Shown here one piece after another: positions 60,652 to 63,217 of a stretch of DNA of 64,000 nucleotides (position 1 is the stretch's first letter; each line of letters starts with the position of its first letter). The notes under the pieces are model-generated. The model was not told the origin of the DNA and searched no databases. It saw nothing but the letters and a program-made list of their open reading frames with translations. The translations under genes and the position numbers were made by a program. The stretch comes from Actinocatenispora thailandica (lineage in GTDB: Bacteria; Actinomycetota; Actinomycetes; Mycobacteriales; Micromonosporaceae), in assembly GCF_016865425.1 (NCBI RefSeq), contig NZ_AP023355.1, forward strand, positions 6,446,198-6,510,197, in the 5' to 3' direction.

Positions 60652-61002
60652 TCAGCCCCAGAAGACGCCGTGCGGGTTGGACTCGATGGTGGCCAGCAGC
60701 GGGCCGGGGCCGGAGGCGGCCGGCACCTCCGGAGCCGGGTGCCACCGGTTGTGGCTGTCGGACCAGTGCAGCGTCCACTCGCCGCCGTCCGGTGGCGGCG
60801 GGGCGTAGCGCAGCTGGGCGACCCGGGTCTCGGTCCAGTCGGGGCCGAGTTCGGGCATGAACGGTGGCCGGCACTCCACGATCGTGATGTTGCGCCCGCG
60901 TAGCCGGTACTCGACCCGCACCTGGTCGCGCAGCTGGTTCGGCACTCGCCGATCGCACCAGCGGGCGATCTGCCGTAGCTGAAGCTCCGGTACGGCAGAC
61001 AA
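60652..61002 (-). CDS. DUF3024 protein
   Basis: 116 residues, MSAVPELQLRQIARWCDRRVPNQLRDQVRVEYRLRGRNITIVECRPPF.., fitting DUF3024, a small actinobacterial family of unknown function. TTG at 61002 follows GGGAGGTGA at seven bases and gives the family-like N-terminus, which decides against a longer reading. It converges with DUF885 and is divergent from the S15 peptidase gene across the DnaA-box cluster. Confidence 0.85.
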   Translation of the reverse strand: MSAVPELQLRQIARWCDRRVPNQLRDQVRVEYRLRGRNITIVECRPPFMPELGPDWTETRVAQLRYAPPPPDGGEWTLHWSDSHNRWHPAPEVPAASGPGPLLATIESNPHGVFWG

Positions 61003-61105
61003 CGCGTCACCTCCCACGCCAGCGGTTCCTTGAACCGTACGTGTCGTCGTGGTGCTGCTGCCACGGTTCGGTCGCACCCGCGGCCCTGTTCACAGCCGGC
61101 ACGAC

Positions 61106-61221
61106 TTTTCCACAGTTGTCCACAGGTTCGGGCGGGTTATCCACAAGCGAACCGGCCGGTTATCCACAGATTTGTCCCCAGCTAGCCCGGTGGACCGGCA
61201 GCGAACGCCGCGTTGTCCACA
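61106..61221 (+). promoter_or_regulatory. Cluster of six DnaA-box-like 9-mers
   Basis: Nine-base sites matching the DnaA box (TTRTCCACA) occur at 61106 (TTTTCCACA), 61116 (TTGTCCACA), 61137 and 61160 (TTATCCACA), 61172 (TTGTCCCCA) and 61213 (TTGTCCACA). All point the same way within 116 bases, in an A+T-richer patch between divergent genes. dnaA and dnaN are not here, so this is not the usual origin; it may be a DnaA-titrating or regulatory cluster. Confidence 0.8.
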
Positions 61222-61282: not shown

Positions 61283-63217
61283 GTGGAAAACCGTCGTTCC
61301 CGGCGGGCCGCCGCCGCGGTCGCTCTGGTCACCGCACTGCTCACGCTGGTCGGTGCGCTCGCCGCACCGGCCGCCGCGGCGCCGCCACCGCCGTACGTGC
61401 ACGGCGGGCAGACCGTGCCCACCTACTCGTACGCCAGCGCGGTGCGCGAGAGCGTGCAGGTGGACACGAAGCTGGACAGCGACCACGACGGCACGCCGGA
61501 CACGGTGTCGGTGGACATCGTCCGGCCACGCACCGCGACCCGGGTGCCGGTGATCATGGAGGCCTCGCCGTACTACTCCTGCTGCGGCCGGGGCAACGAG
61601 TTCCAGCTCAAGAAGTACGACCGGAACGGCACGATCCTCTCGATGCCGCTCGCCTACGACAACTACTTCGTTCCCCGCGGGTACGCGTTCGTCGCCGTCG
61701 ACCTGGTCGGGACCAGCCGCTCCACCGGATGCGGCGACGTCGGCGGCCCGGCCGAGATCGGCAGCGTCGAGGCGGTGGTCGACTGGCTGAACGGCCGCGG
61801 CACCGCACGCTACCGGGACGGGCGAACGGCGCGCCCCGGCTGGACCACCGGCCGGGTCGGCATGATCGGCAAGTCCTGGGACGGCACCCTGGCCAACGGG
61901 GTCGCCGCGACCGGGGTGCGCGGCCTGGCCACCATCGTCCCGATCTCCGGCATCTCCAGCTGGTACGACTACATGCGGCTGGACGGCGTGCCGCGCGCGA
62001 CCGGCTACCCGGGCTGGCTGGCCGGCGCGGTGGACGGGCGGCCCGCCGGCACCTGCGACGCGGTCCAGGCCGGCCTGACCAGCGCCGGCGACGACACCAC
62101 CGGCGACTACAACGACTTCTGGGCGGCCCGCGACTACGTCCCGGACGCGGGCAAGGTGCGCGCCAGCGTGTTGATCGCGCACGGGCTCAACGACCAGAAC
62201 GTGTTCGCGCGCAACTTCTCCCGGTGGTGGGACGCGCTCGCGGAGCACCACGTGCCGCGCAAGCTGTGGCTGCACCAGGAGGGGCACACCGACCCGTTCG
62301 ACATCGACCGGGGCGCCTGGATGACGATGCTGCACCGCTGGTTCGACTACTGGTTGCAGGGCATCCACAACGGCGTGATGGGCGGACCGAAGGTCCGCGT
62401 CGAGCGCGCCCCGCAGCAGTGGCAGCAGCAGGCCGACTACCCGGCACCGGGCGCCCGGCCGGTCCGGCTGTCGCTGGCGGCGGGTGGCGGCGGCGCCGGC
62501 ACGATCGGTACCGGGGGCGGATCGGGCACGGTCGCGCTGACCGACAACCCCGACCTGACCGAGACGCAGGCGGTCGGCGACCCGAACGCGGCCCGCAGCG
62601 ACCGGGCGACGTTCCTGTCCACCGCGCTGTCCGGCACCACCCACCTGTCCGGTACGCCGACCGTCACGCTGCGGTTCCGCTCCGACGAGCCGGACACCGA
62701 GCTGACCGCGAAGCTGGTCGACTACGGCACCGCGGCCCGGGACGACTACCTGGCCAACGACCTGAGCGGGATCGAGGACCTGGACACCCGGTCCTGCTGG
62801 GGCGAATCCACCGCGGACGACTCGGCCTGCTACCTGGACACCACCGAGGTCGTGCACAGCACCGACTACGGGGTGCTGTCCCGCGGCTGGACCGACGCCG
62901 CGCACCGCACCGGCCTGACCCGCTACACGCCCGTCGCCCCCGGCCGGTGGTACTCGATCACCATCCGGTTGCAGCCCCAGGACCAGCTGCTCGCCGCCGG
63001 CCACCATCTCGGCCTGGTCGTCTCGCTGTCGGACACCGAGAACACCAGCCCGTCCAGTACCGGCGCGAAGGTCACCGTCGACCTGGCGCACTCGACCCTG
63101 TCGCTGCCGGTCGCCGGCGCCACCCACCTGGGTACCGTGGCGACGGCGCCGCAGCTGACCGTCACCGCCCCGGCGACGCGCGCCACCCGCTCCACCCCGG
63201 CCCGCCGGTTGCCCTGA
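61283..63217 (+). CDS. Secreted X-Pro dipeptidyl-peptidase-like hydrolase (S15)
   Basis: 644 residues with a signal peptide (RRAAAAVALVTALLTLVGALAAPAAAAPP). The peptidase S15/CocE domain shows nucleophile GKSWDGT, acid HGLNDQNV and His in QEGHTDPF, followed by a C-terminal galactose-binding-like jelly-roll domain (VTLRFRSDEPDTELTAKLVDYG). It removes X-Pro dipeptides or hydrolyses esters outside the cell. GTG at 61283 follows GGGGAG. The upstream region is the DnaA-box cluster, which may influence its transcription. Confidence 0.9.
   Translation: MENRRSRRAAAAVALVTALLTLVGALAAPAAAAPPPPYVHGGQTVPTYSYASAVRESVQVDTKLDSDHDGTPDTVSVDIVRPRTATRVPVIMEASPYYSCCGRGNEFQLKKYDRNGTILSMPLAYDNYFVPRGYAFVAVDLVGTSRSTGCGDVGGPAEIGSVEAVVDWLNGRGTARYRDGRTARPGWTTGRVGMIGKSWDGTLANGVAATGVRGLATIVPISGISSWYDYMRLDGVPRATGYPGWLAGAVDGRPAGTCDAVQAGLTSAGDDTTGDYNDFWAARDYVPDAGKVRASVLIAHGLNDQNVFARNFSRWWDALAEHHVPRKLWLHQEGHTDPFDIDRGAWMTMLHRWFDYWLQGIHNGVMGGPKVRVERAPQQWQQQADYPAPGARPVRLSLAAGGGGAGTIGTGGGSGTVALTDNPDLTETQAVGDPNAARSDRATFLSTALSGTTHLSGTPTVTLRFRSDEPDTELTAKLVDYGTAARDDYLANDLSGIEDLDTRSCWGESTADDSACYLDTTEVVHSTDYGVLSRGWTDAAHRTGLTRYTPVAPGRWYSITIRLQPQDQLLAAGHHLGLVVSLSDTENTSPSSTGAKVTVDLAHSTLSLPVAGATHLGTVATAPQLTVTAPATRATRSTPARRLP

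What the first reader, a model, noticed from the sequence alone, without database searches (positions are those of the whole stretch)
61106..61221. Dense same-strand DnaA-box cluster away from dnaA
Six 9-mers resembling TTRTCCACA lie in 116 bases in one direction, between DUF3024 and an S15 peptidase. No dnaA, dnaN or gyrB is visible. Such clusters elsewhere can titrate DnaA, control replication start or regulate genes, so this may be an undescribed actinobacterial DnaA-binding locus.
Basis: partly seen in the sequence, partly recalled or inferred. Interest (0 to 1): 0.75.

Follow-up and report, generated by a model that had tools for sequence, protein, structure and literature searches.

The report
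Conserved DnaA-box array near origin
A short stretch between two ordinary genes holds a row of likely binding sites for DnaA, the protein that starts chromosome copying; the sites are preserved within the genus while the DNA between them changes, so the row probably soaks up DnaA, and may also tune the neighbouring genes, as similar clusters are thought to do in other bacteria.

Summary
In detail: six same-strand DnaA boxes (four exact TTRTCCACA, two with one mismatch) lie at 61106-61221; no other 116-bp span of this 7.43 Mb chromosome holds as many exact boxes (61 in all). The host is an Actinocatenispora (Micromonosporaceae). It is not oriC: dnaA, dnaN and gyrB lie 435-448 kb away (6% of the chromosome), and the dnaA-dnaN gap has its own 20 mostly weaker boxes. 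The boxes are under selection: in three close genomes of the genus, host included, 0 of 48 fixed box positions vary against 36 of 62 spacer positions, and the spacing of the first five boxes is unchanged; the fourth genome held keeps a rearranged cluster. The peptidase loci examined outside the genus lack it. In the family, direct pairs of exact boxes gather near dnaA and prefer spacings of about 10-13, 18-24 and 30-36 bp. Best reading: a high-affinity, origin-proximal array that titrates DnaA, working like the Streptomyces and Bacillus clusters; control of the two divergent genes is the main rival and may coexist. DnaA binding was not tested. New member of a known kind; the lineage-specific spacing of box pairs is the more surprising by-product.

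The parts
61106..61114 (+). DnaA box 1, TTTTCCACA (TTATCCACA in G001 and G003)
61116..61124 (+). DnaA box 2, TTGTCCACA, exact
61137..61145 (+). DnaA box 3, TTATCCACA, exact (TTGTCCACA in G001 and G003)
61160..61168 (+). DnaA box 4, TTATCCACA, exact
61172..61180 (+). DnaA box 5, TTGTCCCCA, one mismatch, unchanged in the three close genomes
61213..61221 (+). DnaA box 6, TTGTCCACA, exact (TTTTCCACA in G003); 61 bases between it and the inferred peptidase start
61106..61221 (+). the whole array, 60% G+C; lowest 30-mer of the region 50% G+C, so no A+T-rich unwinding stretch
60652..61002 (-). DUF3024 gene; TTG start inferred by eye from a GGAGGTGA ribosome-binding-like sequence
61283..63217 (+). S15-family peptidase gene; GTG start inferred by eye from a GAGGGGAG ribosome-binding-like sequence

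Best explanation
A high-affinity, origin-proximal array of DnaA binding sites that titrates the initiator. DnaA is thought to bind the head-to-tail boxes cooperatively; because the array is copied fairly soon after initiation, its doubling would draw DnaA away from the weaker boxes of oriC and delay re-initiation. Shown here: the boxes, their selection within the genus, their distance from oriC, the weaker oriC boxes, the gathering of box pairs near dnaA in the family. Inferred: that DnaA binds them, that binding is cooperative, and that titration rather than local gene control is the selected function.
For: Selection: in G000, G001 and G003, 0 of 48 box positions other than the third vary, 3 of 6 third positions, 36 of 62 gap-free spacer positions inside the array (Fisher p 2e-12), with no indel between boxes 1 and 5. 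Box cluster upstream of the orthologous peptidase in 4 of 4 genus genomes held. 445 kb from the oriC gap; 396-397 kb from dnaA in G003. The 983-bp dnaA-dnaN gap has 1 exact box, 8 with one and 11 with two mismatches; the array has 4 exact in 116 bp. Family: 84 of 125 direct-pair loci lie within 0.1 genome length of dnaA (uniform: 25), and 59 of 100 when loci within 20 kb of dnaA are dropped (uniform: 20). The C-terminal 97 residues of this DnaA match 3pvp, E 9e-33 (that 3pvp is M. tuberculosis DnaA domain IV is recalled). TTGTCCACA is given as the high-affinity box of M. tuberculosis and S. coelicolor (PMC4285127 Table 1, passage).
Against: No binding or phenotype data. The array lies in a divergent promoter region, where gene control would explain selection nearly as well. 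Outside the genus the peptidase loci examined have no cluster, so nothing ties this place to replication over longer times. E. coli DnaA ChIP-seq prefers box pairs 2-3 bp apart (PMC11317965, abstract and passages): here boxes 4-5 fit (3 bp), boxes 1-2 are 1 bp apart, the others are further apart. Within the genus the placement of box pairs relative to forks does not follow the rest of the family. Related genomes and orthologous loci are not independent in the family counts.
Confidence: 0.52

Rival explanations
1. DnaA acts here as a local transcription factor on the divergent promoters of the S15 peptidase and the DUF3024 gene, tying their expression to the replication state.
For: All six boxes lie in the 280 bp between the two inferred starts; a TAGCGT that could be a -10 element lies between box 6 and the peptidase start in three of four genus genomes, G003 reading TACCGT (promoter assignment by eye). 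The sequence outside the boxes but between the genes is also conserved, 20 of 145 positions varying. DnaA regulates genes in several bacteria, with 3 boxes at E. coli nrdAB and 12 of unknown function at Pseudomonas putida dnaA (PMC8203912, passages).
Against: The linkage is confined to the genus: no exact box within 700 bp upstream at 78 of 78 other named peptidase loci, no cluster at 26 of 26 family loci, three of which have a single exact box (the two sets overlap). Neither gene has an evident link to replication (judgement).
Confidence: 0.33
2. The array binds another protein whose site happens to read TTRTCCACA; DnaA is not involved.
For: Spacings of direct pairs are fixed within some lineages and differ between them: 29 bp in 9 of 9 pairs of three genomes of family f18, 33-34 in 7 of 8 in another genome of that family. 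A plain DnaA-binding model does not predict this.
Against: Match to the high-affinity DnaA box given for two actinobacteria; pairs concentrate around dnaA in the family; DNA-binding end of DnaA conserved.
Confidence: 0.08
3. A datA-like or DARS-like element that switches DnaA between its ATP and ADP forms rather than merely holding it.
For: Compact array of conserved boxes with fixed spacing.
Against: DARS2 requires Fis and IHF sites and datA carries an IHF site (PMC4585315, passages); no such sites were looked for here and no sequence of these elements was compared.
Confidence: 0.05
4. A second replication origin, or the origin of an integrated element.
For: Dense boxes in one direction.
Against: No A+T-rich stretch: lowest 30-mer 50% G+C against 37% in the dnaA-dnaN gap; the usual dnaA-dnaN-recF-gyrB origin region is elsewhere; same place in 4 of 4 genus genomes.
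Confidence: 0.02

Closest known systems
Streptomyces coelicolor DnaA-box clusters outside oriC (Smulczyk-Krawczyszyn 2006)
   Same: Actinobacterial; [quoted passage not shown]
   Different: The original paper was not held; its cluster names (D78, H69, H24) and higher affinity than oriC are recalled. No sequence or place was compared, and there are no binding or deletion data here.
Bacillus subtilis oriC-proximal DnaA-box clusters (Okumura 2012)
   Same: [quoted passage not shown] paper not held).
   Different: Another phylum; nothing compared.
Origin-proximal enrichment of DnaA boxes in E. coli (Olivi 2025, PMC12371093; abstract, section 6 and passages seen)
   Same: Boxes gather near oriC, as a titration model wants.
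   Different: E. coli boxes prefer the lagging strand. Direct pairs in 16 family genomes outside this genus run with the fork in 81 of 105 loci; in G003 3 of 6 and in the host 4 of 11 do, and the host's single exact boxes lean the other way, 21 of 59 with the fork.
E. coli double DnaA boxes (Stringer 2024, PMC11317965; abstract and passages)
   Same: DnaA prefers closely spaced pairs; boxes 4 and 5 here are 3 bp apart.
   Different: The commonest pair spacings in this family, 19 and 21 bp start to start, leave 10 and 12 bp between boxes.
E. coli datA / DARS
   Same: Several boxes in a non-coding stretch outside oriC.
   Different: DARS2 requires Fis and IHF sites, datA carries an IHF site (passages); not tested here.

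Membership tests
extra-oriC DnaA-box titration cluster (Streptomyces/Bacillus type) | dense group of DnaA boxes outside oriC | tested here: met
   4 exact and 2 one-mismatch boxes in 116 bp; the dnaA-dnaN gap is 445 kb away
extra-oriC DnaA-box titration cluster (Streptomyces/Bacillus type) | lies near oriC | tested here: met
   0.060 of the chromosome from dnaA; 396-397 kb in G003. 445 kb is near only relative to a 7.4 Mb chromosome
extra-oriC DnaA-box titration cluster (Streptomyces/Bacillus type) | boxes maintained by selection | tested here: met
   0 of 48 fixed box positions against 36 of 62 spacer positions vary in three genomes
extra-oriC DnaA-box titration cluster (Streptomyces/Bacillus type) | binds DnaA more tightly than oriC (recalled for the Streptomyces case) | not testable with these tools
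   indirect only: more exact boxes than the oriC gap
extra-oriC DnaA-box titration cluster (Streptomyces/Bacillus type) | deletion raises, extra copies lower initiation (recalled for the Streptomyces case) | not testable with these tools
   needs strains
oriC | adjacent to dnaA/dnaN with an A+T-rich unwinding element | tested here: not met
   dnaA 446 kb away; lowest 30-mer 50% G+C
DnaA-regulated promoter | boxes in a promoter region | tested here: inconclusive
   boxes lie between two divergent inferred starts, but no promoter was mapped
DnaA-regulated promoter | box-gene linkage kept with the gene | tested here: inconclusive
   kept in 4 of 4 genus genomes; absent at 78 of 78 other named loci
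datA / DARS | IHF or Fis sites and nucleotide-switch activity | not tested
   no sites searched

The most novel reading that the evidence does not exclude
Actinobacterial chromosomes carry a dispersed set of head-to-tail DnaA-box pairs and arrays whose spacing is locked per lineage (peaks at 12, 19, 21 and 31-32 bp in Micromonosporaceae; 29 bp in three genomes of another family and 33-34 bp in a fourth of that family), concentrated near oriC at least in Micromonosporaceae. They would form a distributed titration system whose geometry coevolves with the DnaA oligomer, and the window array is the densest one in its host.
Probability: 0.3. Interest if true: 0.7.

Novelty: new member of a known kind. 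Interest (0 to 1): 0.45.

Why it matters
How filamentous actinobacteria time replication in multi-genome hyphae is poorly known (judgement). A compact, conserved array outside oriC is a direct handle: it can be deleted or multiplied without touching oriC. The spacing rule, if real, would help tell DnaA-binding sites from chance boxes by sequence alone and would constrain how actinobacterial DnaA molecules sit next to each other on DNA.

Tried and rejected
oriC or second origin: rejected on distance and composition. Chance: rejected. An element that goes with this peptidase beyond the genus: not supported. A universal helical-turn rule for pair spacing: it fits the own family, but other families show 15-20, 27-28 or 29 bp, so it is at most lineage-specific. 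GC skew to place the terminus: 20 stretches and the window gave weak values, so the terminus is assumed opposite dnaA. A lagging-strand preference as in E. coli: the family outside the genus shows the opposite, while the host's single exact boxes lean against the fork (38 of 59). One search aligned the four loci in mixed orientation and was useless; redid it in one orientation. Divergent (back-to-back) box pairs, IHF or Fis sites and expression data were not searched.

Mended: the place of that repeat, the ThiF wording, the distance range, the three-genome wording, the overlap of two locus sets and two claims that were only recalled.

Full report
What is there. The window is bases 6446198-6510197 of one 7,426,695-base contig. 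Six DnaA boxes, all on the + strand, lie at 61106, 61116, 61137, 61160, 61172 and 61213: four exact TTRTCCACA and two with one mismatch. They fill part of the 280 bases between the inferred starts of a DUF3024 gene (minus strand) and an S15 peptidase gene (plus strand).

Not chance. A first-order Markov model of the intergenic stretch gives a mean of 0.07 such boxes on the + strand and at most 2 in 3000 trials. Of 20,000 random placements of the genome's 61 exact boxes none put even three within 116 bp, while the array holds four. No other 116-bp span holds four; a second group of four spreads over 198 bp at 6721843-6722040.

Not oriC. dnaA (6953729-6955774 as an open frame), dnaN, recF and gyrB stand in the usual order at 6942484-6955774, 435-448 kb from the array (named by NCBIfam models over their cut-offs). 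The 983-base dnaA-dnaN gap carries 1 exact box, 8 with one and 11 with two mismatches, and a 30-mer of 37% G+C; the lowest 30-mer of the array region is 50% G+C. The array lies 445 kb from that gap. That the gap is oriC is inferred from this layout.

Under selection. All four genus genomes held, the host included, carry the peptidase and have boxes upstream of it: G000 4 exact and 2 with one mismatch, G001 5 and 1, G003 4 and 2, G002 2 and 5. In the alignment of the three close ones (G000, G001, G003), gap columns left out, 0 of 48 box positions other than the third vary, 3 of 6 third positions vary, 36 of 62 spacer positions inside the array vary, and 20 of 145 positions outside it vary. The low figure outside means that promoter or leader sequence is conserved as well. 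Spacings 10, 21, 23 and 12 are unchanged; the last is 41 in G000 and 42 in the other two. G002 has a rearranged set.

Confined to the genus at this place. Of 80 named peptidase loci (the best 80 of 476 relatives) the two Actinocatenispora loci have the cluster; the other 78 have no exact box, and at most one box with a mismatch, within 700 bases upstream of the match (L141 and L205 offered only 488 and 307 bases). Of 26 family loci outside the genus, the best-scoring ones fetched, none has a cluster and three have one exact box (L094 offered only 482 bases upstream). A DUF3024 homologue was found in 7 of 81 family genomes.

Family pattern. For direct pairs of exact boxes with at most 30 bases between them I used the 17 genomes that one search listed out of 23 searched (six were cut from the listing, and G025 shows 9 of its 10 rows) plus G000. 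After merging rows within 1000 bases, 84 of 125 loci lie within a tenth of the chromosome from dnaA; without loci nearer than 20 kb it is 59 of 100, where a uniform spread gives 20%. Genome lengths were rounded, and orthologous loci are counted more than once. The reversed control pattern found no pair in these genomes. In 26 genomes direct pairs number 255 and convergent pairs 38 (summed by hand); random orientation would give 2 to 1. Spacings of 188 pairs from 20 genomes fall at 10-13 (39), 18-24 (103) and 30-36 (43), with 3 elsewhere; one genome for each of 13 genera, 129 pairs, gives the same picture. In the array, boxes 1 to 6 lie at 0, 0.95, 2.95, 5.14, 6.29 and 10.19 helical turns of 10.5 bp, so the first four are nearly in phase and the fifth is not.

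Against a general rule. Of 98 genomes drawn from the class, two of them of the own family, 43 have pairs. Spacing differs by lineage: 29 bp in 9 of 9 pairs of G157, G176 and G116 (f18), with unlike interiors by eye; 33-34 in 7 of 8 of G166 (f18); 27-28 in 7 of 10 of f13; 15-20 in 10 of 10 of f2; scattered in f15. Several of these are not whole helical turns. Why spacing is locked within a lineage is open.

Orientation. Outside the genus 81 of 105 pair loci more than 3 kb from dnaA run with the replication fork; in G003 3 of 6, in G000 4 of 11, and of the single exact boxes of G000 21 of 59. The terminus was assumed opposite dnaA.

Who binds. The C-terminal 97 residues of the host's DnaA match 3pvp over 94 residues, E 9e-33, and 1j1v, E 7e-19, with the RDHTT stretch intact (that these are DnaA-DNA complexes of M. 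tuberculosis and E. coli is recalled). TTGTCCACA is given as the high-affinity box of M. tuberculosis and S. coelicolor (PMC4285127 Table 1, passage). Binding here is inferred.

Mechanism and comparison. B. subtilis and S. [quoted passage not shown] coli concentrates boxes near oriC, which suits titration (PMC12371093, section 6). The array fits this: strong boxes, early replication, selection. It fits local gene control nearly as well, since it lies in a divergent promoter region. I put titration at 0.52 and gene control at 0.33. Paper searches on DnaA-box clusters and on Actinocatenispora listed nothing on this locus, but only the top rows were seen, for example 20 of 3,442 and 5 of 338.

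Noticed in passing
G000:C1:4935761-4935821 (L024; 20 kb around it in L087): A box triple with offsets of about 0/31/52 recurs at what looks like one orthologous place in Micromonosporaceae: of 12 loci picked for this layout, the YgjP-like metallopeptidase neighbour of the own locus has relatives in 10 of the other 11. The gene on the other side has no Pfam match in the own genome; a relative in L026 matches ThiF at 23 bits, below the cut-off of 28.
   Followed up: partly
G000:C1:271942, 387266, 990729, 6823121, 7254690 (L001, L002, L003, L012, L013): Five exact box pairs spaced 19 bp sit near a C-rich/G-rich inverted element like CCCCCACCC...GGGGG (by eye; the exact CCCCCACCC in three of the five); it could be a repeat or a terminator.
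   Followed up: no
G000:C1:6721843-6722040 (L010, L011, L092): A second group of four exact boxes on one strand, about 232 kb from dnaA.
   Followed up: no
G000:C1:6887448-6887466: A palindromic box pair TTATCCACA-N-TGTGGATAA 66 kb from dnaA; the same form is in G001 and in G003, there also about 66 kb from dnaA.
   Followed up: no
genomes, families f18, f13, f2: Direct DnaA-box pairs keep much the same spacing within a lineage, for example 29 bp in 9 of 9 pairs of three f18 genomes with unlike interiors.
   Followed up: partly
window 61023-61037: A short inverted repeat CGGTTCCTTGAACCG near the DUF3024 start, unchanged in the three close genomes, may be an operator.
   Followed up: no
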